This document shows, piece by piece, positions 6,356-56,900 of a stretch of 64,000 nt of DNA. The notes below the pieces were generated by a model. It did not search any database. It saw nothing but the letters and a program-made list of their open reading frames with translations, and had not been told where the DNA came from. This DNA comes from Perkinsus olseni (Eukaryota > Perkinsozoa > Perkinsida > Perkinsidae). A program made the position numbers and the translations under genes. Every line of letters starts with the position of its first letter. Positions within the stretch are counted from its first letter, which is position 1. Location of the stretch: contig JABANP010000181.1 of the NCBI GenBank assembly GCA_013115135.1, forward strand, positions 31,295-95,294, in the 5' to 3' direction.

Positions 6356-6363
6356 TAAAAAAC

Positions 6364-6503
6364 CGATCAAATCAATCAACGCGAACTGCCGAGGGAACTG
6401 CTCTACTGCTGCCTATCCATCAGAGTATAACATCATCATCGGGGCGCGCGCTGTATCCTCGACTTGCACCTCCTAGCACTCCGCTTCGCTTCCTGCTCTC
6501 CAA
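6364..6503 (-). repeat. Split direct repeat A1 (element 5' end)
   Basis: 140 bp matching 561-700. It forms the 5' terminus of the retrotransposon and ends 9 bp upstream of the first gag ATG (6355). Confidence 0.9.
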
Positions 6504-7636: not shown

Positions 7637-7658
7637 ACTGATAACTTATCAGTGATAA
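7637..7658 (+). repeat. 14-bp inverted-insertion signature, perfect
   Basis: ACTGATAA, then c, then TTATCAGT, then GATAA. The 8-mer is followed by one base, its exact reverse complement and a repeat of its last five bases. The single loop base is the complement of the base after the repeat (g). Confidence 0.8.
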
Positions 7659-7714
7659 GTTAACCACCCGGCAAGAAGCCCAAAGACCAGCCACACTGAT
7701 GAGAGTCTACACCA

Positions 7715-7975: not shown

Positions 7976-8162
7976 GGCGCGCAATATGGGATGCGCTCAG
8001 TGCATGTTCATCGGTATAGGGTACACAGGACTGATGTCGTGGGGACCTGGGGTTGCAGTTGACTAAGTCAACTTGACTTTTTTGTCTTCCAAAACGCCTC
8101 TTCCTCTGTTTCTTGCTCTACTCCTCCAGCATGGAGGATATTCTGATCTGGTAGATCTGGTG

Positions 8163-17100: not shown

Positions 17101-17831
17101 TATACAGCCGATTAGCAACTGATTTCCCGACCCCAATAAATATCCCACCTCACCAGCCACAGTTTCTGTAGTCTTGGGAAATGGTTCACGAAAAGCATCA
17201 TTGAGAGCGGTGCCTCGAACATGAGCTCTAAGCTGCACACATTACTCAACGTCCCTTCACTGCTTCTTCCGTCGAATCTAACAGAAAGAGAAGAACACGG
17301 TCAAAGTCTCAGCGCGAACACCCCGTGAGAATACGAACATCGTTGCTACTGTAGAGGCGGATAATGGGACGACAGGAGAGTAGACAGATGTGTACGGACT
17401 TTAATCATTGGTTTGTACGCAGAGCCTCTGCTGCAGAGGCTCAACTCCCGCTCGGGACTCTTGTCCGAATTGGTGTTTGTAGCGCAATAGTATTGAACAG
17501 TTCAATAGACCAGATTAGAGCAACCCGAACACAGTGGAGTCAAGCACGCCAAAATGATGGCAAACTTGTCGAAAGCCTACGAGGGCTTGAATGAAGGGAC
17601 TCCCTTCAAGGGAGTGTCGAGTCTCAGACCTTCTTCGACCTTCAGAAAAGCATAGTAGGGAATATCTTCAGACTTGAGGTAAGCCTGAGGCGCCTAGTGG
17701 GCCGAGTCCGACTCTTCACCTCTGAGAGATGATTTCTTTGACTGCAATATGAGTGATCGGGTTCTCTTTCTTTTGGAGTGGGAGAAGAGCTCCAGCTCGC
17801 GGCACTCAATAAACGCGAAGAGGTCGGTCAT
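14119..17831 (-). CDS. Upstream LRR exon blocks (separate gene, or 5' part of gene A)
   Basis: Minus-strand blocks with LRR character are FPRLQKLWL before a GTGAGG donor (about 17240-17154), HHLEELHLDHNGAVSL before GTGAGA (about 17020-16862), LKKLHVNNNNVESLDF with ISLEELSAAGNVIA (about 16765-16625), and NLARNRITDKSLKEL with CLTELSIAANEE (about 16552-16410). A possible first exon starts at ATG 17831 (MTDLFAFIECREL). A block at 14343-14119 (PLSDVTRSVVPTPTIL, ending in TAG) may end one gene, which would separate these exons from gene A. The boundaries are not proven. The part between 14350 and 16400 gives only scattered exon-like pieces. Confidence 0.45.
17419..17440 (-). repeat. 14-bp inverted-insertion signature (mirror form)
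   Basis: GCAGA GCCTCTGC t GCAGAGGC: a perfect 8-bp arm pair with the 5-mer repeat on the left side. Here the loop base is not the complement of the flanking base, one of few exceptions. Confidence 0.7.
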
Positions 17832-19227
17832 AGACACTGCGTGAGGGTAAGGTGAGTGAGTAACCGGCTGTGACCGCTCAAGTGAAGCTACCTGGAGAAA
17901 ATCTTTTCTAATGCGCGGAGTCTCCGCGGCGGAGAGCTCGATATGATTCTGTGGTTGATTTGAGGGTGACGCGGTGGCCCTTTCGAAGAACACTGGCAAA
18001 GACACTACACAGAAGTACACCACAGACTTTGTCTTATGTGTACTACAGGTCTGTCGAACAGAAGACGAAGTCTGTAGGGCACATTCTTCAAGGCTTTCAC
18101 GTCTGTGGCATCACTCCTCGCGGACGCCGACTGCGCTGTGCGTATCGAATTGACAGGCATTGCATGCTGCGCGAGGCTGATTGTTTCAAGTGCTGGTTGA
18201 GCTCGGGTCAATACTATTGCGGTACAGTTATTGACGGTCCATACGACAGTCTACCCCTGTGCGCGTAGCGCGAATCAATGATCGCCACACAGTTTGATAG
18301 AAATCTCCAATGGAACGAAACCGCTTTATCAGGAACCATAGAACACAGGCGATGGGGTGCCATGCAGGAAGCATTGACCTCACCCATTGGATGCTAGTAT
18401 GTCCTTCAGTGACCTTTTTTCAATATCTTCATTGCAGCCACGCTCGACCGTCATTCAGCGAGCGAAGAGCAACAAAAACTCCCGAGCACCATGGAGAACG
18501 GTTCTATCTATACGAGTTCTATACGGTTCTATCGGTTCTTATCTATACGAGCGGTGCGAATCTTGCAGATACGAGCCTAACACGCAATTGCGGCTATTCT
18601 AGGTGCTAATCTGTGAGCCTACGCGGGCAATACCTGCAACAACGAAGAAAAAGGCAAGATATTACGTCACTAGCGAAGCGCCATCAGCCGGGGACTCGGG
18701 GGTAGTGTACCGAAGCTCTAGCGTGAATCACAGCGCACGCTGCGCTGCATTGGCTCAAGTCTGAGCCAAACTGCGATTGACTCAAACTTATGAGTATCAG
18801 CTGCTCGATCAGTTCGGGCACAGCAGTCACTCGACTGAGATACTCAGCCTGGGAACCATGAGGGAGTTAGCATCGAGCATTGACGTTTGAGACGACGACC
18901 GCGAAGCGACTGGACCGAACGCAACACATACCTTTCACTGTAGTCTGGCTTTTCCAGAGCGACGGTGAGTTGAAAACCGCTGAGTTCTAACAATGAAATA
19001 AGAGACGACAACCTGTGGGGTGCGTACACGAGAGAAGGATGAAGGAGAGTAGGACAGCTACACTCTGCTTGAAAGCTTGCTTCAATCGGTGCATTACAGG
19101 GCATGTTCGTTTAGGCCTTTGAGGAACGGCTAGTACAAAATACCATAACGCTTTCACAGATACCGCAAAGCTCATAGCAGATGAATGAAGAGTTAAAGAG
19201 CTCATGAGGATACCGACGGAGGCGACT
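17832..19227. other. No supported gene; low-complexity words
   Basis: 18490-18550 contains repeated tctatacgag/ggttctat words. Part of 18860-19227 matches the 3' flank of the paralogous genes at 37299-37640 and 45937-46240, so it is duplicated gene flank. No convincing coding exon was seen. Confidence 0.5.
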
Positions 19228-23530: not shown

Positions 23531-24529
23531 GGTAGACGGGCTGTTCAGTAAGCTTCTGATAAAACTATTCCAGAACTACAGTATCTCGATCAGTAAGATC
23601 AAATCTGTAGTTCTCAGAATCAATTCTCAGAATGCATTCCCGTATTTCAGAACGAGTTCTGGAATCAGTTCCGAGATGTGTGCAAACTTTGAACTTCAAA
23701 GAACTCAATTCTGAGAATCGATTCTCAGGATAGATTCCGGCTACCAACTTGGCGACATTCAGGGCCTATGACTTAGGGAGTTCAAGTGCATTTCCTTAAG
23801 GAAGTCCTTAAGGGAATTGGGTAAAACCTTAAGGGGTTGGCTTAGTGGGTATCATAGGGCTAGGACCTAAACCTTGAAGCGTAAGGATCTAAGCTTAGGA
23901 CCTACGACTTAAGACCTTAAGGTTTTACTCAAGGTCCTTAAGGTGTAGGAGAGTCGGTATCACAACGCTTAGGTACTTGAAAAATCCTCAAGGTTTTCGG
24001 CTCCTTAAGGAGCACCATTCAAGGTTGGTCCGGAGCAGCCTTTACGGACCTCCAGACCACTCCTAACCTGCTGGGCGCGCGATTATTGAAATTTGTTGTT
24101 AATCCATGGTATGAAACCCACGAAGGTTCTAGTCCCACCTTGCCCACTACTCGTCATTCTCATAGTATAAAACTCGTACTACTACCCACGCTCCAACTTT
24201 AGTTAGTTTCGCACACACTTTCACACTAGTTGAGGCAAAACTCCCGCAGAATGGCCAAAAAGACTATCATCGCTGACCACCCGTCAAGCATCAACGATCA
24301 TTCTACGCCCTTCTACGCCACCCGTAGACTATGCCGCGTTGCACGGCCCGCGTAGTATCTCCTCTCCTATCTCTTCTGCGGGTTGCATAGTACAACTTGT
24401 ACTGTACAAGCCGCAGGCCTCCACATCAGTTACAATTGAAGACGTTGTAAGGTGGACTTGGTCGAATGGATATGTTCTATGTTAGACATGCCCGTGTCCA
24501 GGGTTCAATTTTTGGTACAGCGACTATAC

Positions 24530-30618: not shown

Positions 30619-30917
30619 GGGGCCTATTTCACAAGAAATCCTAACCGGTTAGGATTTAGGACGTCTTTAAAAATAGGATCCTAGCCTTAGGACGTCCTTA
30701 AAAGAGTCAAGCGGCTTCACATGAAAATCCTTAAAGGACAGTAGGATCCTAATTCTAAAGACGTCCTTAACTCAGGATAAATCCTAAATGTTAAGATCCT
30801 AATGTCCTACCCTTATGACCTAAGCTTAGGAATCGGTCCATGTGAAAGCCATAAGGCCTAAAAAGGCGTCCTAACCTCTTAGGATCTCAAGGAAAATCGT
30901 CCTATGAAATAGGCCCC
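30619..30917. mobile_element. Inverted-repeat element, GGGGCC family, member 2
   Basis: Ends GGGGCCTATTTCACAAG and, inverted, GGGGCCTATTTCATAGGAC. The 299 bp interior is made almost wholly of TCCTAA/TTAGGA words in both orientations. No coding capacity. Confidence 0.75.
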
Positions 30918-31029: not shown

Positions 31030-32520
31030 GTGTCAATGACACCGTGTCAAGAACAGACACGACTGCAGATAGTGGCGGAAATTCCTAATCGGGGCACCGC
31101 AGCCACACTCCGGGGAGATAGCTAGGTCGCAGCGGAAAGTTTCCGCTGGAAACGGTGCGCAGGGGTCATAGCCCGACCGAACACCACAGCACTGGCCGCC
31201 GGAGTTACTTCCCTGCGGATCCAGAACGATGCCGGGGAGACACAAAAGAAGATCTCCTTAATGGCGGTTCCCGACTTGGCTCGCTCATCAGACCACCAGA
31301 AACGGGTGGCGATGCGCATCTGCTCCTTCAAGTATCGAGTGAGGGTTCGACCACTGACGCATCCCTCAGCATTCACCTCCGAGAGGCTTCCGCCTTGGGC
31401 CGCCAGCTGGTCGGCCACCTCATTGCCCTCGACTTCGGAGTGCCCTGGGACCCAGTGCGACCGTACTATCATACTATGATATGGTTGAAGTGGAAAGAAT
31501 CATTCTTCCTTTCCGTAACTTTCCCAAGGAAACTTTCCAGGAAGGAATACTCCCGGAAAGAATGCAAATTTAAGGAAATTTTATAAAAAATCGCCAATTT
31601 TGCTCAGTTTTCGCCACTTTTCGGGTATTTCGGGTCCTCCAATGCAGAACGCACATATTGCATGTCTTAAATTATCTTCATCGAATTCATTCGGTGCGAA
31701 ATTGCTTAGGTGCAATTTTGGGCGAGCGAGATTTGAATAGTGCCCGCGGAACATCAGCATCGCGCGCCCAATATTTTTCCCAATCATAGTGAGAGCTTTT
31801 GCCACTCGGATAATACCACAGCCTTGGTACTACCAAGGCTGTGGTATTGTCCGAGTTGTACTACCTAAACAAGTTGGTAGTAATCATAGCGGCGAATCGA
31901 CAGCGTAGGGACGAGAAGGGGTAATGGATTGTTAAAGAAAGGGGGAGGGCACTTTTGCCGGCACTCAGTCACCACTAGCTGGGGGATTGTTGAGCGCGGT
32001 AAGTTCGGTTCAGCTTTGCGTTAGCACTTCCACGCCACGATGAGGTGCTAAACCTATGGGAGGATATCGGTCATAACTCAACTTGGCCACGAACAGTCTT
32101 GCGCGTTAGCGCAAGAAAAAAAATCGCTCGCCGCGCCTGAAGTGGAAAGTTTCCGTCCTTTCCGGTCTCATTCTTTCCTGTTACAATTCTTTGCTTTCCC
32201 GGAAACTTTGTAACGATCCTTTCCACTCATCAACCACCCAACCTAGTACTACTATCTCGGTGAGTCCTCGAAGTAGGATGGCAATCTGCCTTGTCTTCTC
32301 CCATTTCTGGGTTCTGGATCGACTGGCCAACTTGTCCTCAAAACTGCTTGGGAGTCCGTGAAGATCTCCCAGCTTTCGCCTGCCGCGGCGTTATCGGTGA
32401 CCCAGCGAGCCGCATCCTCAACCGCATGGAGCTTTAACCTGGAGTGGACTTGAGCGACACAAGTACTTTCTCCACGCGAGCCCAACTACTGAAATCTCTC
32501 TGCTTCTGTCGGAGCCTTGA
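31030..32520 (-). pseudogene. LINE fragment: RNase H and C-terminal zinc motif, interrupted
   Basis: Minus strand: LKLHAVEDAARW and EIFTDSQAVLRTSW (32252-32485), then an inserted element, then RSHWVPGHSEVEGNEVADQL (31400-31472), and after a frame change ECGCGAPIRNFRHYLQSC (31060-31110). These are the RNase H core and the terminal Cys/His motif of I/R1/Jockey-type non-LTR retrotransposons. No RT or endonuclease part was found, so it is a 5'-truncated, broken copy. Confidence 0.75.
31482..32240. mobile_element. Inverted-repeat element inserted in the LINE RNase H domain
   Basis: The left edge TGGTTGAAGTGGAAAGAA and the right edge, inverted, TGGTTGATGAGTGGAAAGG match. The subterminal parts are full of GGAAAG/CTTTCC words (31490-31570 and 32140-32225). 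The element separates two halves of one RNase H domain, which defines it as an insertion. Inside lies a near-perfect hairpin at 31808-31857 (arms about 24 bp, 1-nt loop). Confidence 0.65.
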
Positions 32521-34768
32521 CTCAAGGCCCGAACTCAAGGCCCTTGAGGCTCGACCTCGAGGCCTTTGACTTGAAGAGTCTCCGACTCGGAAGCTCTTTG
32601 ACCGTCGAAGTTCGACGGGCACATGGGAATGCAGGTGAATAATTCCGTGACTGGTTGAGACCTTTCATCAGGCGCCAACGCGGTCTATAGCAGGACGAAC
32701 ATCTCGGCGTTTGCTGCTCGGATCCGAAAGGTGATCAACGCACCTGGTACCTGCTCACACTTGGTGCGACGCACCAAGTAAGTGTGAGGTACCAAGTGTC
32801 AGGTACCCTTACTCTCCTCTCCTCGCTCAGGTTACCCAAGCTTGGAAACTCTCGAGTCCTCAGCACTTCGCTGAGAGACCCCAGACGATCAATACTTTCC
32901 AATATGGGCATGAGATGAAAGTGCTGGAGACCAAGCTCAGGCAGCGAAATATTATCAACGAGGTACCATAGTTAACGAGTCGTTAATAACGACCTTAACT
33001 TAACGTAGAGGCCGATTGGCTATGCGGATATCTCGTGCGTAGGTCATCATGCAAGTCTGTGATATGAATAATGAAGAACTCGTGTCGCGATACTTCATCG
33101 TAGACACACACAGACTTACTCCCACAGCGGCAGTGCAGGACAGAGAGGAAACGATGGACGTATACCTGAAAGCTATCCTCCTGACAGGAGGCCTGACAGT
33201 GTCAGAGCTTTCTGAAGGTGAACCATCCAAATTCATCTGTTTTCCTGCAGACGCTCCCATCCCCGAGACCATGATGAGGTCCTCATCATGAGGAGCCTCC
33301 TCAGAGGAGGTATTTCTGCTTCTATCTTGCCACTTGCCCACTAATTACGAGTACGACGCGGCCGAAGAATTTCTCCATGCAAGGAGTTCCGTGACAGGGG
33401 ATGCTGTTCACGTAGTTACCCTACTGAGATAGCACTCGGAGCACAATCAGTGTAAGTGGGTCGTTGAAGGTTACGCCGCAGGACTTAGTTACCTAATAAA
33501 CACCATCCGATGACACAGTATTGAAAACAATCTCTCCAACGTTCGTTATAATTGGTTGACAGGTATGTTCCAGGAACGCGGCAACTGCCGAGGCTTCGAC
33601 GTGGGCGGTCTCATGAAATGCCGGTCGGCCCCCTCGGACGCTTTGACTCTCTACTAACAGCGGCGGATTCAGGTAATCCCCAAGCCTGAGGCCAACAAAG
33701 GACTCTTGTAGTCGCTTTTCGTGTGAGGGCCCAAATTATGTTCATCAATCGTCGACTGGCCTGTTAGTGCTCCTACAAGTACTGTGCAAGTCCCTCACAC
33801 GGGCATTCCCAACCTCAATTTGAGGTCCTCGAGGCCTCACTCAGTTTTGAGGTCCTCAAAACTGAGTGAGGCCCGCAATCTCCTCGCGTATGCGTGCTGC
33901 ACGCAGCGTGCAGCCTACTGAGCAGGAGATAGTCGCCTGCTGCAAGGCAGCAAATCGTGACATAGTTACGATTTGTCACGGAACAGAATGGTGCACGCAC
34001 AGAAATTCACAGTCTCCCGCGATTGATGGTGACTACCCGAGCCAAGCTAGAACGATCCATACAATTACAATCAGCTCAACCACTGGGGCAATCACTAGCT
34101 CAATCACTCTCCACTAGCGAGCAGACTCTCGTGTCACCGGCTCGTCGTCAACACATTAACGATGCCAGCTGTTCATTGGCATTGGTCAACGACCCTGATA
34201 CATGCGAGCGTCCCCTGGGGCGGTATGAGTGATTGAAGAGAACTTTTTCTCTTGCCCCAATGGGGAGCATGTGGACGTGTTGTCCTCTCGCTACGATAGT
34301 CGATAGTGGGAAACCCGTAAAACAGCTGTCTGTCTCTCAGCCTTCTGAAGAATGCGGCATTCTGAATGCCCACATAATATGTATCGGTCAACACCCACGT
34401 TGAAAATCGGAGGATTTCGTTCACCTATCCACGTGTGTGGTGCGTGTTAACTTCTCCGTACAGATTCTACGGCGAGCATAAAGTTCTTTGTTAGCAACAA
34501 TCCTTTAAAAGGCGAGCGGTCTCCGATAAGCTAGCTTCGCTGCGTACTCGCGTATCACGATTAGCTGTAGAAGGACTAGCGAATGATTCATTTTGAATCG
34601 CCGAGTTTTTGTCGGACGATGGAAGAAACTTCTAGGCTTCTGAGTTTGCTTCTGAAAGCACGGATTGACTATCAGATGTCAGCTTTATGAATGGCGATTC
34701 GACGTCAATTGTTGCAGAACACTCGCTTCGACCCTGGTCGGTGAGCGTTGGTATACCGCTGCCAATGG
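32521..34768. other. Gene-poor stretch with many short hairpins
   Basis: No supported gene. Hairpins: 32760-32795 (GGTGCG a CGCACC core), 33272-33293 and 33288-33309 (overlapping 14-bp signatures TGATGAGG t CCTCATCA TGAGG and ATGAGGAG c CTCCTCAG AGGAG), 33833-33873 (20-bp arms, loop t), and 33890-33911 (ATGCGTGC t GCACGCAG CGTGC). Confidence 0.6.
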
Positions 34769-35634: not shown

Positions 35635-35656
35635 AACTTTGAGTCAAAGTCTTTGA
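35635..35656 (+). repeat. 14-bp inverted-insertion signature, absent from copy 1
   Basis: Intron 1 of copy 2: AACTTTGA g TCAAAGTC TTTGA. Copy 1 intron 1 is 50 bp against 64 bp here, and reads AACTGCGACTCTCAG at the site. Confidence 0.85.
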
Positions 35657-36262
35657 CCCTCAGGCACGTTAAAGCATATTCAAACGCTCCGAATCCAGGA
35701 CGCGGTGGGGCCCCGCTCACAATTCGATGAGATCAGGTCGATAATTGTGAAATCGGACGGCTCTCAACTTCTCGCCATCAACGATGATGCGTGAGTCTTC
35801 TACTGATGGGACGGTGGATTTCGATAGTGGACGCCAACGTTTGGGTTTGACTCATTTTCAGATTATTCTTCACCGTGCGCCTGGAGAAGACTCTCGGTGA
35901 TGAGTTTGATGTGTCCGAAGCAGTGATATACCCGATGCGTGATCCTGATGGAGAGAGCATACCGTTTTTAGGAGACTCCGATACCGATTTGGATGGTGAG
36001 TGATGACACAGTGCTACCAGCAGTCGCCATTTCTCTGATGATCGATATACAGTTTATGGTTTTTCGAACAGCTTGTCACCCGAACTGTTCAATGCTTAGT
36101 CTGATCCCAGATAGTACCCGCTACTCGACTGGAGTATGCTTCAGGTAATCCCCGAGGTTTAACCATCGCCGGCGCTTATCCGGGTGAAGGAAGAGGAGAG
36201 CTCATTGTTAGCTTCGAGACGAGAAGGACCTTGCTCAAGTATGAGGCGGTCATTCGCTCATA

Positions 36263-36284
36263 GGCCGAAACTTTCGGCCCGAAA
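36263..36284 (+). repeat. 14-bp inverted-insertion signature, absent from copy 1
   Basis: Intron 4 of copy 2: GGCCGAAA c TTTCGGCC CGAAA, perfect. Copy 1 has GGCCGAAAGGC at the same place (20193-20203). Confidence 0.9.
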
Positions 36285-36300
36285 GGCAAAAATGAGTGTG

Positions 36301-36322
36301 TTCACGCCGTGAACTTCACGGC
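36301..36322 (+). repeat. 14-bp inverted-insertion signature (mirror form), absent from copy 1
   Basis: Intron 4 of copy 2: TTCAC GCCGTGAA c TTCACGGC, perfect. Copy 1 has GTGTTCGCGGCGAGC (20168-20182). With the 36263 site it explains the full 28 bp length difference of the intron (105 against 77). Confidence 0.9.
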
Positions 36323-37298
36323 GAGCTTGCTGATGATTTTCAGGTACCCTGTCGGAGTCCGTTCACGTACGAGTGTTGAGATCGACGTATCTGAGCTGTT
36401 CGACGAATGCGACGTCGGGCCGCAAGCTATAACCAAAATGCGTAAGTGAGCAAGTGAATACCGCCTGGACTGAATGCGCAACCGTAGGTCCAAATCGACT
36501 CCTCCCTGGATACCTCCTCATGATCTGCGACGAGCCTACGAACAGCGATCCCAATGTCTACCCCGCCTTCGCATATGATGAGGGTGTTCCCACCCGTTTC
36601 TCGGTGGAGGTAGCCTGATTTCCCGTCTCGTATATCGACGACGCAGTATTGGGCTTCCCGTAGTGGATGCCCGATGGACTACTTACGCTTCTCGCAACCG
36701 CGGGGATTAATCGCTCGAGCTTTCTGTTCTCATTCAGTCTGATGGCGACTTCTTTCCTGTCGACATGGCGGGGTTGAGTAATGGAGATGTCATGATACTC
36801 TTCAGAGGGTGAGTCGCTCGGTTTCTTCGCCGCACCAATGACCCGCTTGCCTTTCGATCAGGCCGGACGACACTGAGATGAGGATCGGCTTTGTCCCATC
36901 GAGAGACCTCACCCTGGCTATGCGTCGAGGCGACACAGTGGTACCACAAATCATACTTGAAGCGGCCGAAAGCGACGGGTGCGTGAGCTGTAGTCAGCTG
37001 GCGAGACTTCTAGTAGACGAAGTCGCCAAGTAGCTGATGACTCATCAGCTACTTTGCGACTTGTCTACGTCTACCTCATCAGTGATGAGACTGTAGTTCG
37101 CCATACCTCTCGTTGCCGCTGTGGTTCATATCTTGGATTGTCGCAATGGAAAGCTGTTCTGTTAGGTTCAATATCGGCAGACAATCAGGATTGGCAATCC
37201 GCGAGGATCCAGACAATCGGGCTTTCGTCTATACCACGAGTGAAAGCCGCTCTGGTGGGCGTCCAACCCTACTTACGGCTTTCGAGTGGATAGCATGA

Positions 37299-38880
37299 AG
37301 TCGCCTTTGTCGGTAACCTCATGAGCCTCTCAACTCTTCATTCATCTGCTTTGTGGCATGCATGGTAGCGTTACGGTATTTTGTACTAGCCGTTCTTCGA
37401 AGGCTTATAGGAACATGCCCTGTAAATTACAGGCTGTAATGCACTGATGGAATCGAGCTTTCAAGCAGTGTGTAGCTGTTCGACTCTCCTCATCCTTTTG
37501 TCGCGTACATACCTCTCAGGCTTTTTTGACTCTTACTTCATTGCTAACGCTCTGCGTCCTTAACTTACCATCGCTCTGGAAAAGCCAGATTGCAGGAAGG
37601 AATATAAGTTGAGTTCGGGCCAGTCGCTTTGCGGTCGACGTGTCAATCGTCGATGGTCGACGGCAATACTTTGCACAGACAGTGGGCAATGGGGAGGAAG
37701 GCGTGGCGGGTAAACTCCGCCGACACCGCGTAGAGCCTCGAAGTAATCAACTCAATATGGATGAGTCGTGATGTTTCTATCATTTTTTGGCCCAACGATG
37801 AGGTACCTAGGGCCTCTCTTAGGAGAATGACGGCGTCATTATGACGCCATCCGGTGCCGAACCTCCGCCGACTCGGCGGCGCCGAGTGACGCCTGATTCT
37901 GAGTGCTAACTGCTCGAGCATTGCACTAAGAGGGATCTATCACGGGTTCCGTCTCAAAGGCCGCCAATTGCCGCTATGTCGCAAGGAGCGCTAGCAGCCT
38001 TATAAATCTGGATTTCTTCACTCCTTCGCAGCTTCATTTACATGCCAAACTGGACAATCAAGCGCCAAAGCCCTTGCCGTTCGCCTCTTGGCATTCGACC
38101 TGTAATGTTTACCTCGCTGATCCTATCTTGCTCCGACAAGAAGCTACGCTGAAGTTGCCCTCTAAGTGTCAATATTACAGTACTCTAACGGAGTTCAATG
38201 CTACGATGATCTATAGTCATAGATGATATACACCGCTATTATGATCATATTGCATGACTAGGGTGCACGTCGACGTGGTCCCGTCCTGGTGTTCGTGTGG
38301 TTCCATCATGTGGAACTTCCACACAGTAGCTCTTGTGTTTCGGCCGCCTCGTGAACCCGGTTCTTCTCCAATGCAGCTTCCCGAGTTCTACACTTCCCCT
38401 GGCCTCTGTCGTCATCGGGAGACGATTTACCCAGCCTGAGGAGGTCATACGAGAAGCCGCAATTGACGTAAGCACAACTCTGATTGAGCGGCTATGTGAT
38501 GAGATTGTGTTAACGTCTACTTGTGTATTCTGCCTCCAGTATCTTAGCGCAAGCTAGTACTGGTCTGAGTTACTGTTCTTTCAATTGTACGGTTAAGTTA
38601 AGTCTTCAACAATTCTGTGTGAGTTGAGTTGTAGTGGTATCACCAACGTTCACTACAAATTGGTACTGGAACCGAGAGTCTTCTCTTAGTGCAGATATTG
38701 TAACTCCGTGAACGTTCCCTTTGAAGAATAATGTCGATTGCGCTTCCTGAGTTAGAAGGTGTGATTAATGGTGTTCGTGACATTTTATCAGCTCAACAGC
38801 AACTCGCTACTACTCGTTCCCAATCCGTTGGTGTTAACCTTACTGACAGTCTGCAGCTTCCCTCTAGTAGTGAGAGGGAT
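37299..38880. other. Duplicated 3' flank, then unassigned
   Basis: 37299-38100 matches the flanks of copies 1 and 3 in patches. Insertion signatures: 37418-37439 (CCCTGTAA a TTACAGGC TGTAA; copy 1 lacks it at 19089-19105), 37827-37848 (ATGAC GGCGTCAT t ATGACGCC) and 37864-37885 (TCCGCCGA c TCGGCGGC GCCGA). No gene is supported. Confidence 0.6.
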
Positions 38881-39020: not shown

Positions 39021-39149
39021 TCGTTCGAGCGAGATTCTCGCGGCGGTGGCTGGCTCAGCTATACTAGCTGTGATAGCTCGCCTCTGGGTTTTTGCTTGGT
39101 TCCAATTTCGAGCCATTTGTCAGTTGGAGACTCCAACTTGGAGTTATAA

Positions 39150-40524: not shown

Positions 40525-41127
40525 TCCGGGTGTATTACGATTCGTACACCGAAAACTAGTACACTATCACTTCGTACACGGCTCGTACACTGAATACTAG
40601 TTCACTCATTGGATTCATACATCGTCATTTCGTACACTTGAGACTCGTATACATATAAAACTCGTACATGTAGTGAGTCGTACACATAAAGTTCGTACAC
40701 GTGAATCTCATACACTGGCAACTCGTACACGAGCACGACTCGTACACTATGCTTGCTGAGTCGCATTTTTGGGCCGCGCGCCGGGTGCAATGACGGAGCG
40801 AAGGAAGTTATATTGTCTATAGGGAGCGAACTGTTCGCGCCACCTGTGAGAAAAAGTTTATTAGTGTGAGTGGTATGGTGGTTATGGTAGCGCCGCTACC
40901 GTAGCGGATTCTCGATCGGAAGACCGCGAGTTTGATCCTATGTGGAGGGAGTCCCTTACTAGGAAGTAGATAGTGTAGTACCAAGGGGCGGGAGAGCGCC
41001 TGAGCAGCTCCGCGACTTGCCTAAAAAATTTTCGCGGAGTTTACGAAATGGCGGTGTACGACTTAAAACTGAGGGTGTGTACGAAATGAGAGTGTATGAA
41101 ATGCCGGTATACGAGTTGAAAGTGTAC
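40525..41127. mobile_element. Foldback-like element with inverted arrays of GTGTACGA
   Basis: 40540-40750 carries about fifteen variants of TCGTACAC on the plus strand, spaced about 20 bp. 41046-41127 carries the reverse complement (GTGTACGA) at similar spacing. The arrays thus form long, imperfect inverted ends. The centre has AT- and GC-mixed unique sequence with a tRNA-like GAGTTTGATCC at 40928-40938. It sits between the truncated hAT gene and the LRR relic, both of which it may have broken. Confidence 0.6.
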
Positions 41128-44100
41128 CCCGATGGTATGTTCCTCGATGATGCTCCCGTTAGCCCCTTCGACGTGAGCTTCCCGTCAGCTCCCTTCGAGC
41201 CACTCCCCTTCCGCGAGAGTCAGTTTCTATCATCATATTCCGAGGAGAAGCTCTCTCGTTTGGATGTTTCATACAATAACCTTAAAACTTTTAACGCCGA
41301 TCACCAGCGGCCCGAAAGTCCATGAGTAACGACGAATGCATGCAACTCCCCATCGCATACAATTTTTGTCACCTTCATTGCCCGGAGCGGCAAAAATTGT
41401 ATGCATCAACACGTATGCACATACGTCACGTATGATACGTGCTTTCAGGTCCTGAATTCTAGGAATTTAGATGTACTGAGACATATGTACACTTTACACA
41501 GCGCGTGTAAGCCCATGGCGTATATGAACATACAAACATTTGAACGTATAGAAAACCCACATCGCACCTTGTGATTCTTCACAGAGGTGGTCAGTTTTTG
41601 GTCGTATTTCGCCGCCTCGGCTTCCAAGTTCTTGGGAGTCCTGACGATGAATACTACTCGACGAGGCGAACTAAGTGTTGGTTTGTTAGAGTGAGAATGG
41701 TCACTCAGCGCTGCAAACGCCCGAAACTACCAACAAGCATCATTTTCCGTTGCCACCGCGATCCGCTTCAAAGAAATGGACCATTGCCGGGACTGATAAA
41801 CTGAGGAAGTGCGGGACGATCAGATGACACACCGGTGAATGAAGTTACCTTCGGCGAGTGTATTCAACGGGCGAGATAGAAGCTTCTGCTAGAGTACACA
41901 TGGCAGCGCCATGTCTATGAGTCCCTCCCCCTTGCGTGCAGAATTATAGGTCGCGCTATAGACCTTTCCTCATCCCTCTTTCTCCAATTGAGTCTCACCT
42001 CCCTCCCTTGGTCCCTTAAGCATCGTACTTACCTCAGCTTGTGCTACTGGAGTCCAGTAACTGGACGGAACTGACGTACTGAATGACTCCGACAGGGACT
42101 CTTCGCCGACAAGAGTGAGACTCCGTAGTGCGTGTTGATGTCGAGACCGAGAGCTTCAGATTATCGCAGAAGAAGTGATAGCCATTTCGATGGCGACTAC
42201 GGGAGCTGCTTGTCCTGGACTAGGAGGTGCTCCATTGTCTCACGTGGGGTGAGCATCTCAGGGACCGCCCCGGATCTCATCCGACTGCACTTGGAATGAG
42301 CCGAGAGTGTGATTCATTCAAAACTTGGGCGCTTGGCGCTAGAAAAGAACGCTTCGTTTTCCACGACGCTGCGCTCGGGCTGTGGATCATTGGGTGGTAG
42401 GTGTGAGTCACGCCGTGTGACATACCTTCGGATGACGACGTGCAAGGCCAGGAAAAGGTCGCTGTTATCGTGGAATCCGAACCGGATTCGGTTGGAGCAC
42501 AGCTCATCATACGGATAGGCCAGAAGCTAGCGGTACGGTGGTACTCCAAAACAGTGCTTGTCTGCACTGTCACAATTCACTCACGCCTACCAATCTAACT
42601 TCACCATTGTCTACGACAATCGTGTTGTCGTCAACGCGGCTGAAAAGTCGGTCTAATCAGCGATGGTATCAATAAAAGAAGCCACAGAATGCTAGCGTTG
42701 CAGGCGTTACTCTAATGCTGGGCTAATGTTGAGCCCTCCCTCAGCGAACTCCGTACGGGACAGAGTGGCTGAGATTAGTCCCGCAGCGCCGTGAAATATT
42801 TCAAGTGAAATATTTCTGAATTTTTCAGAATTTTTCTGAAATTTTCAGAAATTTTTCTTCAAAACCCATTTTAAGCGATTCTGAGCCGGTTTCATAGCAC
42901 TTTCGACTCATATGGGCTCTCAGGCTCGTGGATACTATCTAGTCTGGGCGATAGTGCGTTCCCAGCTTGTGCAGTAGGTAGAAGGGCTGTTCTTCAAGAG
43001 CAGCGGGGCGGAGCGCGCGCCACGTATAATGGGTGCTACGTGCATTTTGCACTAATTGTGCTATCACCGATGCGGTGCAGTTCCGGTCTGGTATTCCTCA
43101 GTAGTTGTTCCCCCTTAGGTCTATAAGCGTCATCGTCGCTGGGGGTGGCCGGGTTCTCCGGTACCAAGTATAGACCAAACCTGCCACACACGCACAAGAC
43201 GTTGCTGCATGATGCAGCAACGTCCGTGTGGTACTAGGGAGCATTTTTTCAATAAAATTGAAAAATTGAAAAAATTTATTTTTTTTAAATTTTCAAAAAT
43301 TCTTCAGTAAATTTCCAGAGACGCATTTCCGAGGTAGACCACCTTAGAAATGTGTCACCGAAAATCTCTCCCAAGGTGGAGCACCGGCCGGCTCCTCGAG
43401 CAAGAAGGCGCTGCTGACAAAGACGAAGAAACGTCCTAGACGTTCGGAAGTTGAGTCCACGTGTTTACAATCTGTGATTGAGGTGTACTGAGAAATCTAC
43501 TGCACTGTTTGTGTTGAGTATCGGCAGCTTGACGGGAAATGGCCAAAAACGGCCGAAATAGGCCAAAATCGCTAAAATTTCGTAAAAAGTGAAAATTTCA
43601 CTGAAATTTTTTTCGGTGAAATATTTGAAATATTTCACTGAAACTTTCTTGAAATATTTCACTTTGAAATATTTCAGCCACCCTGGTACGGGATCATTCG
43701 TGTACTCAAGCCGAGCTCTCAGTAGCCAGGAACTATATCGTGCACCTCGACGGTAGCACGGCAGGGTGGTGAACTGTGGCCTCGGGTGGGCGCAGGTCTG
43801 CGCAAGCTGCTCTCCGCCTGCCCCTTCCGCCTCCTGGACGTGTCGCAGAATATCATTCAACACTTACAGATAAGAGATTTCTTTGAGGGGCCGTGTGGGA
43901 AGGGAATTCAGCTAGAGCGAAGTCGGGTTCCTCACTTTGTGACGTTCTCTATAAGAGGTCCTGGACGTCAGCTCCAACCACCTGGATTCACTGGAGGTGA
44001 TCTCAAAGACGAGCAGCCTACGGGCTCTGTGAGAAGAGAGGGAATGCTACTTTTGGATCTTCGAGGCCTTCGAAAAACCTGACAAAAATTACCGAGAGTT

Positions 44101-44600: not shown

Positions 44601-45404
44601 TCTAGGTTAAAACCGGCGCGGAAAGATGCCGCGTTATATTGTGCGCACAGCGGGACACCTGTGGGTCCATTGCTCCCGGGTCCACAGGACGACCCGCACA
44701 GCGGGTCGTCCTCTTGACGCTCTCTTCTTTTTTTAAGGATTCCTTTTGTTTCCTTCATGAATGGGCTCATTGTGTGCGTGGATGGCCTTAGAGTATTGCT
44801 CTTGCGTCTGCCTGCAGAGGCCCATCCTTCTTGCGGTCGTGCGCGGGGCGCCTCGTGGGCGGCTGCCTGACTGCGTCAGTATTCAGGGTTGCGCGTGGAA
44901 CTACCGTATGGGTGTGGTCCGCCGTGACTCTTATCGTGAGCAGGCAGTGCTTAGCGCCGATCATTTTCCGGCCTTCCACGGGGCCATTCACCTGGCCCGG
45001 GGACACGCTGCTCACGCTTCACGCACGTGGCGTCTTCAGTAGCCTCGTTGCGTTGGCAACTCGAGGCCCTACTTGTCTTGTCGTACCCCCTCTCATTGGA
45101 GGCTTTATAAGACTGGTCCCTCACTCAGTCGAGGACTGGCTCGGCCACCCGCTTCTATCCGGGGGCCCGGCGGGTAGCGTCAGTCCGCACCCTTCATCAG
45201 CCTTGGGTTTTCTAGTCGTGTACCGTCGCCTCTCGGCTTGGGCTTCTGCCTCACCCTCGTAACCGTAGTGAATATGATATTCATAGCCCATGGGATATTC
45301 AGAATATCCCATGGGCTATTTGCGCTTCCCGCAGCCGCGCCGGTTATTCGTTCAAGTTGAACGGTTCAACTCTCCTGCTTGAAGCAAGCTGCTTCTCATT
45401 TCAG
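44601..45404. other. GC-rich stretch and hairpins, no supported gene
   Basis: 44690-44715 is an 11-bp-arm hairpin. 44760-45262 is GC-rich with an open frame of 143 codons starting at a TTG that I cannot assign. 45274-45312 holds a long hairpin (TAGCCCATGGGATATTC, loop a). 45348-45369 is a 14-bp signature (TCGTTCAA g TTGAACGG TTCAA) in the relic of intron 6 of copy 3. Confidence 0.5.
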
Positions 45405-45936: not shown

Positions 45937-47739
45937 AGACGCCTTCGACCTCATGAACCTCTAATTTTTCACCCATCTGCATGAGCTTTGTGGTAAGTAT
46001 GATACGTTATGGCATTCTGTACTAGCCGTTCTTCGAAGGCTTCGCTTAACATGCTCCCCTCTGAGGAGAGAGCATGTTCTGAGGAGACTCCTCATCCTTC
46101 TCTCGAGCACACTCCTCATCTTTCTTCGTCTCTCATTTCATTGTTATTCACAACTTGTCAACGCTCGGCGTTTTCAACTCACCATAGCCCTGGAAAAGCC
46201 AGACTACAGTAAAAGATATGTGTTGCGTTCAGTCCGGTCGTTTTTCGGTCGTCAGTAATCGTCAATGGTCGATGGAATTGTGTTCCGATTCGGAACTTCC
46301 GAAGCTCGGGAGGCCACTCATTCCAATTGTCGCTTACGTCTCACGGAGTGGCGGAAGTCCTATGAATCTAAATTTCTCCGTAGCTTCATTCAAACGCCTA
46401 ACTGAGCGATCAAGTCTCAAAGCGATTGCCGTTCGCCTTACACCATTCGACCTCACTTGTTGACTCGTGACTCTAGAGGCCACTCCGTCAGCTGCAGTCC
46501 CGGAATCCTGACCTCTAGAATTCAATGCCATAAGGGATTAGTAGGAATGAAAACTAGTAGCCATAAACTTAGTAGTACAGAGCTCAACCACACCAGCTTT
46601 GTGTGCTATGATACGCAATCTCCTGGACGGTTACAGCACTTCACAACTTATCGGAGTCGACGAGTCAGTAGGTGACCTACTGTAGGTCGCAGTCAGTCGC
46701 GGTCCAAAATTTTCCGTTCTCTGAGATTCGCTCTCATATTTTTCTGCAATACATCTGGCGGATATGCTAGCGATGTGACACCGCCGAATCGGCGACGCCG
46801 CACGGTGTGCAAAAATTCAAAGTGTCCTAAGCAAAAAATCCATCGTAGGTTTGCATACTCCGATTCAGGGCATCGACATAAAGCTTTCCTAGACGAATTC
46901 AGAGCCCTGAATTCGTCTATCTGCCACGTCTCTCAGCACGAAAGGCGCCGGATGTCACACCAATTTTGCATAATAGTGTTCTTCAAAACTCTTCCGTCGC
47001 CAGCTGCTACGGTCTTCCCCAGCTGCTGCAGACTGCGGCGGCCTGCGGTCTTCGGCAGTAAGCAAAATTGCAGGACCTCGTTCTTCAGCAGCCAACCCCA
47101 CCGCATCAGTCTACGCGGCTGGCCCCGCTGCTAGTCCGGTGACATCCTTCGTTGATGCCGTTCCGGGAACGGCCAGAAGTGTCCGTGTCAATGGTCACAC
47201 ATCGACTGCTTGATAGTATCAAGTTGATACACATCGGTGTAATTATCATTGGTTACCCATCCACCTCAGTGTACACAGCGGTGCCACTAGCGGCATCACA
47301 TAGTAGTAGCCTCTGAGATTGCCTTCGGTATTCATTCGACTCACAACGCATCCGTCGGACGGTCGGGAGCAAACTTATCATGGGCTACCCATGTGGGTAT
47401 TTCAACCACCCATGATAAGTTTGCTCATCAACTACCGTAGTTGATGGAGCACGCTACTCAGGTTACCATAAAACTCGCGATAATCAACTAGTAGCAGCCT
47501 CCCCGACCATTCACCACTTGCTATCTCTCAAAAAGATACTCCGCCAACCACCCTTGTCATGAGCGATATTGAGTTGTGTCAGCTTCATACTCACTGTGAT
47601 CACTCAACACGTTGACCGATTCGATCAACTAATAATAAAAGACGCGTCTGAAAAAAGGGAATTAGATAATGCAATCTAGCTATGATTATGGCGATTTGGA
47701 TGGGATATATGTGTAGGAAATGAAATGTGCAGATTATCA
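45937..47739. other. Duplicated flank and unassigned DNA
   Basis: 45937-46460 matches the 3' flanks of copies 1 and 2. 46920-47160 matches 30380-30600. 47386-47455 contains nested inverted repeats around aaacttatcatgggc. No gene is supported. Confidence 0.5.
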
Positions 47740-50271: not shown

Positions 50272-52919
50272 TTTGGCCTATAGCGACGCTATAATAGCGT
50301 GATCTGTTGCGTAATGCAGTACGTATACTCATGAACACGAGTGCAAGGCACAAGATGATATGAGTTCCTCACAGTAAGAGAGCACGCTCGCACTGAGCCC
50401 GGCTCAGTGAGCCGCTAGACATGCAACATGAGATCAGGTGAATAGTGCGCGGCCGCTTACAAAATTTCTCTCGGCGGAGGCGCGTCCAACCAGGTTCAAC
50501 CTTTCAGACAGTGGGATATGGATCTCATTGCCGTTGGGGAATTCTTGCCGATTTTCGTGCGAAAGATAATTTGTAGAAGTCTGCACGCCCTGTACGGAGG
50601 TTGCTCGGCGTCCATGAAAATTGTGAAACGTGCACCATTTTGGCAGCGAAGCGTAGTTCTGTCCCCTTCGTGCGCCGCGTCGCCTCAGTCGTACGTGCGA
50701 AATGGTTGGTTCCTGTCGTGGGTGTTTTCGTTTGGCATGGAATCACTCCCGGACCAAGAGGATTGCAGCGAGACACTCGATGTGGTCAAAAAACCTTACC
50801 TTTTGCCATGGTAAGGCGAACCGGTGGCAAGAGAAAGCTTCGCGGCGTTTGACTGTAGTAACTTGAGAGGTCTTCAAAGCATACTAAACTTCATTTCCAT
50901 ACCAGCGAGGAATTTCGGACGGTGCTCGCGAAAGCTCTAACAGAGGGCACTTCCCACGTCTGAGACGTTTCGAGGTTGACAGGCGCGTGTTTAGGGGAGA
51001 AATTTTCTGACTCTCACACCGCATTCGGGGAAGATCGAGTCAAAGTGCCGTAGACACAATCTCCATCACCAAACGGTACGCCGAGAAGCCGGAGGCTCAT
51101 GAGAGATGCTTTTTGAGTGGCCCGATCGACCCACTGCGTGGGCACCCCGATCGGGCCCTATCTGAGAGTCTGGTGTTGAGACTACTTGGCAGCGAGCTCC
51201 GAGGTCGGACGTCGTTACCTCCGCAAAGAAGAGTTTCCAGCAAAGCCCACGAGGGACAGTCGAAGCCAATCGGTTGCATCAGGATATGTCCAGATCGACA
51301 ACCCTCTTTCGTGAAGCATGCGGAGAGATAGCTGCGCTAAACTCCTCTATGCGGAGACTATGCAAGGTTAATCATCTTTCTGGCTCCAGCACGGTTCTTG
51401 ACTCGATATCCTGTATAGGTGCTGATCTCGCAGACTCTGCAGAGCGGTCGGTGTGATCTTCGCCAGAAACGAACCGTTTACTCATTCTTCAGGTATGGGC
51501 CTTGCTGCATACCACCCTTCGAAACTTGCTGTCACCTCTCGAAGTCGTGGATCTGATCACCGTGATTCACGGCTCTTCTCCTAGCGCCCTCGCCCTGTTT
51601 GTGTGTGCTTGAGATGTTCGACGAGCGGCTGCGTCAACAATCGACACAGTCTGTAACAGCTACGGGGGGCAGGTAGCCCGCCCTGTACTCCTAATCCGAT
51701 CGCGTTAGGGCAAACTTCTCTCTATGGACTATCGGATAGTCACTATCTCGCATTTCAACCTTAGCGATTTCCCCACACATGGAGTTTGAACGACTCTTGT
51801 CCTACTGAGAGCGATTAAACTCTCACTTAGTAGCCACGGGCACCCAGAATTGTCATCGGTAACTCATATGGGTCTCTTAGACAAGTTATGGTTCCGTGAT
51901 GTGGAGCCGTTGCACGCATGACCCGATGGGGAGAGTGGCCATTCAACGCAATATGTTCTCACAGAGTAAGCTGACGATCCCAACCCCAATGGGACTGCTC
52001 GACGATCTGGAGTGCGAATGCACCAACGGCGTAGGTACCACCATTGAATATGACGGGGGTTCATAGTATGAACTTCATACTAAGCCAGCGCGTCTCGGGG
52101 AACGCACGCATGCTCATATGCATGTCCAAACGCATGCCCAACGCTAGAGAACGCATGACTGCGCAGGATCCGTAATCGCTTATAACTTCATAGCCAGAGC
52201 GCTAATAGCTAGCTGGGAGTAACGAACAGAACCGGTAACTTCTCCCAAACCTATTCCCCGAATTTCAGCCTCATACCTGCTGCGCACTGAAAATAAAGTA
52301 ACACGATACCACGAATCACGATTTGCTACAACTAGTCTATGGGTCTTGCAGGGTCCGTGGGGTGACTTCCGCGCTCGCCCGGGGGCCCCAACCCCGGAGC
52401 GCGAAAGGGCGCCTTCGGCGTGCAATTAAGCTTTTGGCAAAGCAAGTTCGCGCCTGCACGCAGGCTCGGGCCGAAGCATATGGGTAGAAGATCTATTCTG
52501 CGCTATATTTCCGTTCTACTGTAGAACCCAATTAGAGCTTCATCCTCCTCATTCACACCGGAAGTTATATTGTAGACAGTGTCTGCTAGACTCCATCTCT
52601 GTGGACGAATTTGTCGTCACCCTGAGCTGTAGTGATGACCAGAAATTGAGCCGGGAAGCGCCAAGTTAAGACGGAGTTGATTGTTGAGAGATTGGAGATA
52701 CTACGAAAAAGGCCGACGTTGAACGAAAGCAAAAATCTTAACCGTACGATGGAAGCTTAGATGGGAGAGGCCCGAGGCCTGCCCGTCACCGTGTCACCAA
52801 GTGGTAACGGGGCGGCGTCACGCTCGACTTCGCTCCGCTGTGTGAACGCCGCGCTGCCGCCATCGGCTTGGCAAATCTGCAGGCGAGTTCTTTGACTCGG
52901 CAATACGAGTTGGCCTTTA
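50272..52919. other. No supported gene
   Basis: Frames at 50518-50852 overlap without motifs. 51113-51155 contains an inverted repeat (GCCCGATCG...CGATCGGGC). 52065-52090 and others are short hairpins with a 3-nt loop. Nothing else could be assigned in 2.6 kb. Confidence 0.4.
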
Positions 52920-56399: not shown

Positions 56400-56900
56400 G
56401 GGAATCAGCGGCAATAAACCTCGTCATGGAGCCATTCAAAACGATTATTCTGACTAATCAAAAACGAGCGCTGAGCGGGTTTCCAGGATATGCAAGCACA
56501 CTTCGCCACTCGGGCTGTATCATGACCCCTAGTTTAACTCTTCGAGAGCATCTTGATGGCAGACTAGCGCTCGCGAAGCGGGCTGGAAATGTTGCAACCA
56601 GCCAATGTGGTGCTGTTATGGGAAAGAGACAGGGCGGCCCTGTCAGGGCCTATCGGTGAGTGTTCGTAGAGATTTATAAAAGGATCGTCCTCCCAATTAT
56701 TCTTTGTGCTCACGGGGTTTGGGGCTGTGTCATTGGCAATAGATGTACCAGAGACGAAATTGATCTAGTAGGATCGGCTTTCCTTAGAAGGGCACTGAGT
56801 CAGAAAGAGCACCCCCCGAGGCCTGTTGTATATTGCGTCAGGTGTTATGCCCCTTTCGCATCTTGTAACGGAAAGAATTGCCATCACACAGATGTGTAGA
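56400..56900 (+). pseudogene. LINE reverse-transcriptase C-terminal fragment
   Basis: SLTLREHLDGRLALAKRAGN followed, after an in-frame TGA, by VFVEIYKRIVLPIILCAHGV. This matches the thumb region after the RT domain in non-LTR retrotransposons, where a helix repeating AxKAxxA precedes YxxxVLPxxxYG. No catalytic domain remains upstream. Confidence 0.6.

What the first reader, a model, noticed from the sequence alone, without database searches (positions are those of the whole stretch)
35635..37439. 14-bp insertions with fixed geometry separate paralogous introns: an inverted 9-mer between duplicated 5-mers
Copies 1 and 2 of the secreted-protein gene allow empty and filled sites to be compared. 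Intron 1 is 50 against 64 bp, intron 5 is 60 against 46, intron 4 is 77 against 105 (two events), and a 3' flank site at 37418 also differs by 14. Each filled site follows one rule. A window W of 9 bp (3+5+1) keeps its place, and the reverse complement of W is inserted between two copies of its central 5-mer. Example: GGCCGAAAGGC becomes GGCCGAAA, c, TTTCGGCC, CGAAAGGC. The apparent 1-nt loop is thus the complement of the base right of the duplicated 5-mer. The fixed 9/5 geometry is what random template switching would not be expected to give. It could be a staggered-cut (5-nt) repair process, a specialised polymerase, or an extremely small mobile activity.
Basis: seen in the sequence. Interest (0 to 1): 0.93.

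Follow-up and report, generated by a model that had tools for sequence, protein, structure and literature searches.

The report
Uniform 14-bp scars of jumping genes
The genome of the shellfish parasite Perkinsus olseni is strewn with 14-base insertions that follow one rule, and the size, shape and placement of this rule fit the scars left when hAT-type jumping genes are cut out, except that here one way of mending dominates.

Summary
The window holds 40 perfect copies of one 14-bp structure (0.0002 expected); 15 stretches from other contigs hold 24 in 128,904 bases. The rule is 8/6, not 9/5: an 8-mer W = x-M6-y becomes xM6 | rc(W) | M6y; only 11 of the 40 also fit 3+5+1. Near-identical paralogues differ by it. 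Long palindromes too centre on one unpaired base, and many have the predicted 7-mer again just outside.

Best explanation: excision footprints of hAT transposons, which make 8-bp target duplications and leave hairpin-capped flanks centred on the complement of the base beside the element. Two such ends annealed over the 8 bp give exactly this insertion. hAT elements with 8-bp duplications are present; the 8-mers beside their ends resemble the 14-bp targets. New is the uniformity: 85 joins of this class against 8 of the one-plus-one class (shuffle 2).

Not shown: a site with the element in one copy and its footprint in another; 11 element-free counterparts of 9 hAT sites (4 read whole, 1 in part, 6 judged by span) show no such footprint.

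The parts
35636..35657 (.). 14-bp structure, W=ACTTTGAC (intron 1 of copy 1)
36264..36285 (.). 14-bp structure, W=GCCGAAAG (intron 4 of copy 1)
36300..36321 (.). 14-bp structure, W=GTTCACGG (intron 4 of copy 1); present in L001 and L003, absent from L002
37419..37440 (.). 14-bp structure, W=CCTGTAAT (3' flank); present in L001, absent from L002 and L003
19742..19776 (+). 25-bp composite of two 1-nt-centred palindromes in copy 2 (L005), absent from L004; imperfect fit to the hairpin model
7638..7659 (.). 14-bp structure, W=CTGATAAG
8058..8079 (.). 14-bp structure, W=GTTGACTT
9551..9572 (.). 14-bp structure, W=CGCCAGAC
9576..9597 (.). 14-bp structure, W=GTATGCGT
9609..9630 (.). 14-bp structure, W=GTAGTTGC
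15673..15694 (.). 14-bp structure, W=GTCGCAAC
17593..17614 (.). 14-bp structure, W=GAAGGGAG
17914..17935 (.). 14-bp structure, W=CGCGGAGA
24389..24410 (.). 14-bp structure, W=AGTACAAG
32972..32993 (.). 14-bp structure, W=TTAACGAC
33273..33294 (.). 14-bp structure, W=GATGAGGA
33289..33310 (.). 14-bp structure, W=TGAGGAGG (overlaps the previous one)
33891..33912 (.). 14-bp structure, W=TGCGTGCA
34349..34370 (.). 14-bp structure, W=AGAATGCC
37826..37847 (.). 14-bp structure, W=AATGACGC
37865..37886 (.). 14-bp structure, W=CCGCCGAG
39123..39144 (.). 14-bp structure, W=GTTGGAGT
40886..40907 (.). 14-bp structure, W=GGTAGCGG
41420..41441 (.). 14-bp structure, W=CATACGTG
42045..42066 (.). 14-bp structure, W=TACTGGAC
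45349..45370 (.). 14-bp structure, W=CGTTCAAC
46282..46303 (.). 14-bp structure, W=GTTCCGAA
46667..46688 (.). 14-bp structure, W=AGTAGGTC
47209..47230 (.). 14-bp structure, W=CTTGATAC
50279..50300 (.). 14-bp structure, W=TATAGCGT
50393..50414 (.). 14-bp structure, W=CTGAGCCG
52059..52080 (.). 14-bp structure, W=GTTCATAC
56629..56650 (.). 14-bp structure, W=ACAGGGCC
57171..57192 (.). 14-bp structure, W=ATGCTAAG
57216..57237 (.). 14-bp structure, W=CGAGAGGG
57362..57383 (.). 14-bp structure, W=AGCCAATC
58049..58070 (.). 14-bp structure, W=AACAAGCC
58564..58585 (.). 14-bp structure, W=TGATGAAT
59076..59097 (.). 14-bp structure, W=CACCCAAG
59194..59215 (.). 14-bp structure, W=TCAATCTC
60838..60859 (.). 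14-bp structure, W=CCCCTCAG
31804..31880 (+). long 1-nt-centred palindrome (arm 26 with a mismatch) with M6y repeated outside
32514..32548 (+). both hairpin ends kept at full 8-nt length with a 5-nt filler between: xM rc(W) ccgaa rc(W) My, W=GCCTTGAG
33812..33873 (-). long 1-nt-centred palindrome (arm 20), 6-nt filler, rc(W) of exactly 8, M6y
37020..37089 (+). long 1-nt-centred palindrome (arm 21 with a mismatch), filler, rc(W) of exactly 8, M6y (W=CTGATGAG)
45269..45319 (-). long 1-nt-centred palindrome (arm 18), rc(W) of exactly 8, M6y
58690..58743 (+). long 1-nt-centred palindrome (arm 21), 3 hairpin nt on the other side, M6y
59353..59411 (+). long 1-nt-centred palindrome (arm 25) whose end repeats six bases of W, then x'M6y
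42761..43685 (+). 0.9-kb non-autonomous hAT-like element, ends CAGAGTGGCTGA / TCAGCCACCCTG
42753..42760 (.). left 8-bp target duplication GTACGGGA of that element
43686..43693 (.). right 8-bp target duplication GTACGGGA of that element

Best explanation
The 14-bp insertions are excision footprints of hAT-type DNA transposons. (1) A hAT element inserts with an 8-bp staggered cut, so the 8-mer W = x-M6-y stands on both sides of it. (2) On excision the transposase nicks one base outside the element (between M6 and y) and the freed end attacks the opposite strand, capping each flank with a hairpin that reads xM6-y'-rc(M6)x', where y' is the complement of the base next to the element. (3) The two hairpins are opened and become 3' tails that share the 8-nt word; they anneal over these 8 bp, tails beyond are trimmed, gaps are filled. 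Product: xM6 + rc(W) + M6y, 14 bp longer than the empty site. (4) Sometimes a hairpin is opened or extended further out and joined through filler bases or another short homology, giving the long palindromes with a 1-nt centre. The products are shown in the sequence; steps 1 and 2 are inferred from matching geometry, target preference and established hAT biochemistry; step 3 (why mostly this product) is inference.
For: Two numbers diagnostic of hAT (8-bp word, 1-nt palindrome centre) come out of scans that did not assume them. Palindromes with arms of 10 or more: 39 distinct with a 1-nt loop against 2-8 for each of loops 0 and 2-9; of the 39, 23 have the predicted 7-mer again outside (some are 14-bp copies), against 3 of 8 at loop 3 and none at the other loops tested. 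In the 14 composite rows printed, the second end carries hairpin-derived bases up to, never beyond, the 8-bp border. hAT domain PF05699: 21 matches over cut-off. Seven copies of a 0.9-kb family have identical 8-bp duplications on both sides; L027 of a TAGAGATGGGCA family has one and transposase pieces. Target preference: 243 distinct 14-bp sites (up to two mismatches) W1 A.21 C.29 G.36 T.14, W2 T.38; 32 8-mers beside hAT ends W1 A.20 C.31 G.34 T.14, W2 T.38; random sets reaching the hAT score: 0 of 3000 with flanks, 26 of 4000 without, 63, 61 and 87 of 4000 in reduced sets of 29, 27 and 8. W2 T fits nTnnnnAn stated for Hermes (PMC10368747, passages). Ac/Ds footprints in yeasts are palindromic insertions centred on the complement of the base next to the transposon, arms up to 20 nt in S. 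cerevisiae (PMC5873905, passages). Paralogues 98.6-99.0% alike differ by perfect filled/empty sites, so the process is recent.
Against: No site was found with an element in one copy and a 14-bp footprint in another. Element-free counterparts of hAT sites are plain: read whole, C19 and C211 for L024, C206 for L026 and C291 for L036; read in part, C504 for L060; judged only by span, four at 98-100% and two at 80-82%. hAT elements seen number tens (35 end matches, 14 matches) while perfect 14-bp structures extrapolate to about 11,000, so many excisions per surviving element are needed. The usual hAT footprint (one hairpin base from each side) is rare: 8 against 2 in a shuffle, and repeats at distance 8 are not raised. 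Most TAGAGATGGGCA 8-mers were read on one side only, and L024 carries different 8-mers on its two sides; taken alone, that family reaches 102 of 4000 and the 0.9-kb family 463 of 4000. The 0.9-kb family is called hAT by its ends and 8-bp duplications only.
Confidence: 0.7

Rival explanations
1. Abortive or footprint-only hAT activity: a hAT or domesticated hAT-like enzyme cuts an empty target with the 8-nt stagger (or inserts and is removed at once by the same complex), hairpins form and are mended, so no stable insertion ever existed.
For: Same 8/1 geometry and target preference; 14-bp structures greatly outnumber visible elements; in L001-L003 there are four polymorphic 14-bp sites and no element polymorphism; element-free counterparts of hAT sites lack footprints.
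Against: No hAT enzyme known to me does this (recalled, not searched for); simple excision explains the product with known steps; elements with 8-bp duplications are present.
Confidence: 0.18
2. Short-range template switching during replication: the polymerase leaves after M6, copies the other strand for 8 nt, and returns to the start of M6.
For: A single double switch can write the same letters; template switching inserts inverted local copies in other genomes.
Against: In great apes the copied fragment varies widely (median 12, MAD 4.5, maximum 128; PMC7954356, passages); here one geometry dominates, with a dyad-symmetric target preference over W that a polymerase slip would not need.
Confidence: 0.05
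3. Another cut-and-paste superfamily or unknown nuclease with an 8-nt stagger and flank hairpins (for example Merlin, or a new family).
For: Only geometry and a weak target profile link the scars to hAT; not all transposon families were surveyed.
Against: IS1595/Merlin domain PF12762: 0 matches. Flank hairpins with the complementary-base centre are the documented hAT pattern.
Confidence: 0.06
4. Assembly artefact or tandem-repeat slippage.
For: None found.
Against: Perfect copies lie in 10 of 15 sampled stretches, recur at the same place in paralogues on different contigs, and decay by substitutions (61 with one and 62 with two mismatches against 0 and 1 in a shuffle).
Confidence: 0.01

Closest known systems
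hAT (hobo/Ac/Tam3) transposon excision footprints, e.g. Ac/Ds in plants and yeasts, TcBuster in human cells
   Same: 8-bp duplication; palindromic insertions centred on the complement of the base next to the element; occasional long palindromes (PMC5873905, PMC3499496, PMC4763223, passages).
   Different: There: many different footprints, mostly with short palindromes (28 kinds among 128 in C. albicans, two of them predominant). Here: one 14-bp product whose inverted word spans exactly the 8-bp duplication dominates the joins counted, in natural genome sequence.
Short-range template-switch mutations
   Same: Inserted inverted copy of local sequence.
   Different: No fixed length in the great-ape survey; here fixed 1+6+1 and a target preference.
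Introner elements of Amoebophrya (a parasitic dinoflagellate, also an alveolate)
   Same: Inverted and direct repeats in introns of an alveolate (PMC7789003, passages).
   Different: Those are whole introns with 8-20 nt inverted repeats and 3-5 nt direct repeats; the 14-bp inserts here have no sequence of their own and also lie in a 3' flank and inside transposons.

Membership tests
hAT excision footprint | scar arises at an 8-bp target duplication | tested here: met
   geometry scan yields an 8-mer word W with its central 6-mer duplicated; hAT-like elements here have 8-bp duplications
hAT excision footprint | palindrome centred on the complement of the base bordering the element (1-nt centre) | tested here: met
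   loop-1 excess; loop base is the complement of the base after M6 in 40 of 43 cases where the scan did not demand it
hAT excision footprint | target preference like that of hAT insertions (nTnnnnAn) | tested here: met
   weaker for each family alone (102 and 463 of 4000), and most 8-mers of one family were read on one side only
hAT excision footprint | hAT transposase in the genome | tested here: met
   21 PF05699 matches over cut-off
hAT excision footprint | element present in one allele, footprint in another at the same site | tested here: inconclusive
   11 element-free counterparts of 9 sites (4 read whole, 1 in part, 6 by span), none with a footprint at the site; they may be pre-insertion sites
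hAT excision footprint | usual heterogeneity with short hairpin-derived insertions | tested here: not met
   85 copies of the 14-bp class against 8 (shuffle 2) of the one-plus-one class; hence 'works like' and 'variant of', not a typical member
template-switch mutation | variable fragment length | tested here: not met
tiny mobile element | carries sequence of its own | tested here: not met
   all 14 letters are determined by the target W

The most novel reading that the evidence does not exclude
P. olseni has a dedicated way of resolving hAT-type hairpin ends that opens them at the border of the target duplication and anneals them over 8 nt, possibly even at targets where no element ever settled, so that a transposase-made 14-bp scar is one of the commonest short insertions in the genome and lengthens introns.
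Probability: 0.3. Interest if true: 0.87.

Novelty: new variant of a known kind. Interest (0 to 1): 0.74.

Why it matters
Transposon footprints are mostly studied a few at a time in engineered assays. Here a natural genome seems to hold thousands of one kind. That would give a direct readout of past excision, show how a protist mends hairpin-capped breaks, and make a transposase-driven process a main source of 14-bp insertions (frame-shifting in exons, tolerated in introns). It also gives a scan, needing no element at all, that could reveal hidden hAT activity in other genomes.

Tried and rejected
Template switching: rejected on the length spectrum. Tiny mobile element: rejected, no letters of its own. 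Merlin: 0 matches. A 6-bp duplication with unoffset hairpins: rejected because y' could not then come from the occupied site (reasoning). Element/footprint pairs: eight joined-flank empty sites and 26 short flanks plus two right flanks were queried; of the matches away from the elements, C291 and six others were read: four plain empty sites, one read in part, two degenerate element copies; none a footprint at the element's site. Loss of end-joining as the reason for uniformity: not supported; one weak Ku exon match over cut-off; nine DNA polymerase A matches, theta type not tested. Fillers were compared by eye with the ends of the two hAT families; no likeness seen. Rfam and tRNA scans of the window: nothing. 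Literature: the searches listed no paper that by title or start of abstract treats 14-bp footprints in Perkinsus; only open-licence papers are held, so absence is weak. Whether introns are favoured over exons was not measured, for lack of annotation.

Counts: searches used window plus L002-L004, L006 and L009-L029 (230,020 bases), so copies of one event in paralogues can count more than once; one search is not de-duplicated, one search is. One search also shows excesses over the shuffle in classes with few hairpin bases (0+0: 98 against 41; 0+1: 28 against 11; 2+0: 9 against 1; 3+0: 7 against 0); real sequence has more short tandem repeats than a shuffle, and one search shows no peak at distances 6 or 8 against other distances, but some may be footprints. 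One search used 32 8-mers (23 of one family, 9 of the other, two of these and most of the 23 read on one side only), near-duplicates of one insertion dropped except CACTCCAC; one search dropped the two one-sided ones of the 0.9-kb family; one search dropped CACTCCAC, then L024's and L055's, then all one-sided ones.
Full report
What was checked. The window lies in a 61.5-Mb assembly of 968 contigs. A window protein matches a Perkinsus olseni protein at 90%, and source contig lengths 188,728 and 512,101 given for P. olseni FOZ60 proteins recur as C557 and C1, so the genome is taken to be P. olseni, a parasite of clams.

The observation. Scanning geometries p-M-q (M 3-11, p and q 0-3) for the rule pM | rc(pMq) | Mq gave 40 perfect 1+6+1 structures in 64,000 bases against 0.000238 expected; 3+5+1 and 1+5+3 gave 12 each, 2+3+1 gave 3, nothing else exceeded 2. 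Eleven of the twelve 3+5+1 hits are 1+6+1 copies. In 15 stretches from other contigs there are 24 in 128,904 bases, in 10 of the 15, which extrapolates to roughly 11,000 perfect copies; with up to two mismatches 75 in the same sample. Over window plus fetched loci (230,020 bases) structures with 0, 1 and 2 mismatches number 94, 61 and 62 against 0, 0 and 1 in a block shuffle, a sign of decay after formation. E. coli, 50 kb: none.

Recent. Three copies of the locus that are 98.6-99.0% identical (L001-L003) differ by six distinct indels of 3 bp or more; four are perfect filled/empty pairs of this rule, one is a 14-bp difference that does not fit, one a 38-bp repeat unit. L004 and L005 (96.5%) differ by six: four fit (one with a mismatch), one is a 25-bp composite, one 34 bp. 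Copies of a 0.9-kb transposon also differ by such inserts, along with indels of other lengths.

What the structure says. The rule reads the same on both strands. The middle is the reverse complement of an 8-mer W and stands between two copies of its inner six bases. So the 8-mer must have been duplicated, one base lost at each inner edge, and its complement placed between. That is what two hairpin-capped ends of an 8-bp duplication give if the hairpin joins the strand ending after M6 to the opposite strand starting at y', one base further out: each end reads xM6-y'-rc(M6)x', and the two ends share the 8-nt word through which they can anneal. hAT transposases make 8-bp duplications and cap the flanks with hairpins (PMC4763223, passages); Ac/Ds footprints are palindromes centred on the complement of the base next to the transposon, with arms up to 20 nt in S. 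cerevisiae (PMC5873905, passages). The one-base offset of the first nick in Hermes is recalled, not read here. The centre base is the predicted complement in 40 of 43 cases when the scan leaves it free.

A prediction that held. If hairpins are real, some should be opened further out and leave long palindromes with exactly one central base. Palindromes with arms of 10 or more: 55 at loop 1 against 2-15 at loops 0 and 2-7 (274,512 bases, not de-duplicated); de-duplicated 39 against 2-8 at loops 0 and 2-9. In 23 of the 39 the predicted 7-mer (M6y to the right or xM6 to the left) lies just outside; part of these are 14-bp copies, and the longest two (arms 30 and 28, L040) lack it. Fourteen rows were parsed (two rows are the same event in window and L002). 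One end has a palindrome reaching into the flank, then filler of 0-18 bases, then the other end with hairpin-derived bases, often exactly eight: window 33853, 37041, 45301 and L009 2998 (eight), L017 4084 (eight with one mismatch), 59378 and L014 7425 (seven), L019 6345 (six), 31830 (four), 58711 (three); L036 1448 and window 43627 fit poorly and L014 7156 could not be parsed. Window 32521 keeps both ends at full eight with a 5-base filler. In 59378 the join uses another stretch of the flank that repeats six bases of W, as microhomology joining would. One search also lists many 1-nt-loop hairpins of arm 7-10 outside 14-bp copies for which no outside repeat was found; they are unexplained or decayed.

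Uniformity. Counting joins with p hairpin bases on the left and r on the right and no filler, the 14-bp class (p+r=8) has 85 members; the usual one-plus-one class has 8 against 2 in a shuffle; classes with very few hairpin bases show excesses that are listed under Tried and rejected and may be tandem repeats. So the process is hAT-like in chemistry but unusually uniform in outcome. A border at exactly eight is expected if ends anneal through the duplication and loose tails are trimmed; an enzyme nicking at the border would also do.

The suspects. PF05699 (hAT) has 21 matches over cut-off. A 0.9-kb family with ends CAGGGTGGCTGA has identical 8-bp duplications in the seven copies with both ends found, one of them in the window at 42761-43685. 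A TAGAGATGGGCA family (35 exact end matches) includes L027 with an 8-bp duplication and transposase pieces; most other copies were read at one end only, and L024 has different 8-mers at its two ends. Target preferences agree: W1 poor in T and W2 rich in T in both sets; random sets reach the hAT score in 0 of 3000 with flanks, 26 of 4000 without, and 61-87 of 4000 in stricter sets. T at position 2 and A at 7 is the Hermes pattern (PMC10368747, passages).

What is missing. No site was caught with element and footprint. Eleven element-free counterparts of nine hAT sites are plain: four read whole, one in part, six judged by span; they may never have been occupied. The imbalance between thousands of scars and tens of elements is expected for long-lived cut-and-paste elements but also for abortive activity. 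I therefore keep the footprint-only variant as a serious rival.

Verdict. Best filed as a new variant of a known kind: near-uniform, genome-wide hAT-type excision footprints.

Noticed in passing
window 1072-6412 (minus): Reverse transcriptase frame next to a tyrosine-recombinase (phage integrase family) frame and a third frame without Pfam match: a retroelement of the kind that uses a tyrosine recombinase. No perfect 14-bp structure lies in it.
   Followed up: partly
L055 (C206:42937-43000): A TAGAGATGGGCA hAT end whose neighbouring 8-mer CTGTCCCC forms the third repeat of a 14-bp structure with two mismatches: the same 8-mer may have been hit twice. Chance is not excluded.
   Followed up: partly
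L024 (C129): hAT element with different 8-mers on its two sides (GTCCGGAG and AGTTGTAC); its left flank is that of the C209 and C25 copies, so the locus looks recombined.
   Followed up: partly
L011:3239-6122: Apparently a large inverted repeat (matching pairs from 3239 to 6122 about one centre); an assembly fold-back or a true palindrome.
   Followed up: no
L040:299 and L040:2256: Two perfect palindromes with arms of 30 and 28 and a 1-nt loop that share nearly the same sequence but lie 2 kb apart, without the outside repeat; perhaps ends of another element.
   Followed up: no
window 22332-22986, 30620-30916, 48832-49521: Elements of 0.3-0.7 kb with similar inverted ends (GGGCCTATTTCACA-like) flanked by 3-bp repeats CTG or CAG: a further inverted-repeat transposon family.
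   Followed up: no
window 40555-40745: Array of short repeats around TCGTACAC.
   Followed up: no
L033, flanks of the hAT-like element: A stretch of about 45 bp around the target 8-mer is present twice in tandem, one copy interrupted by the element (output).
   Followed up: no
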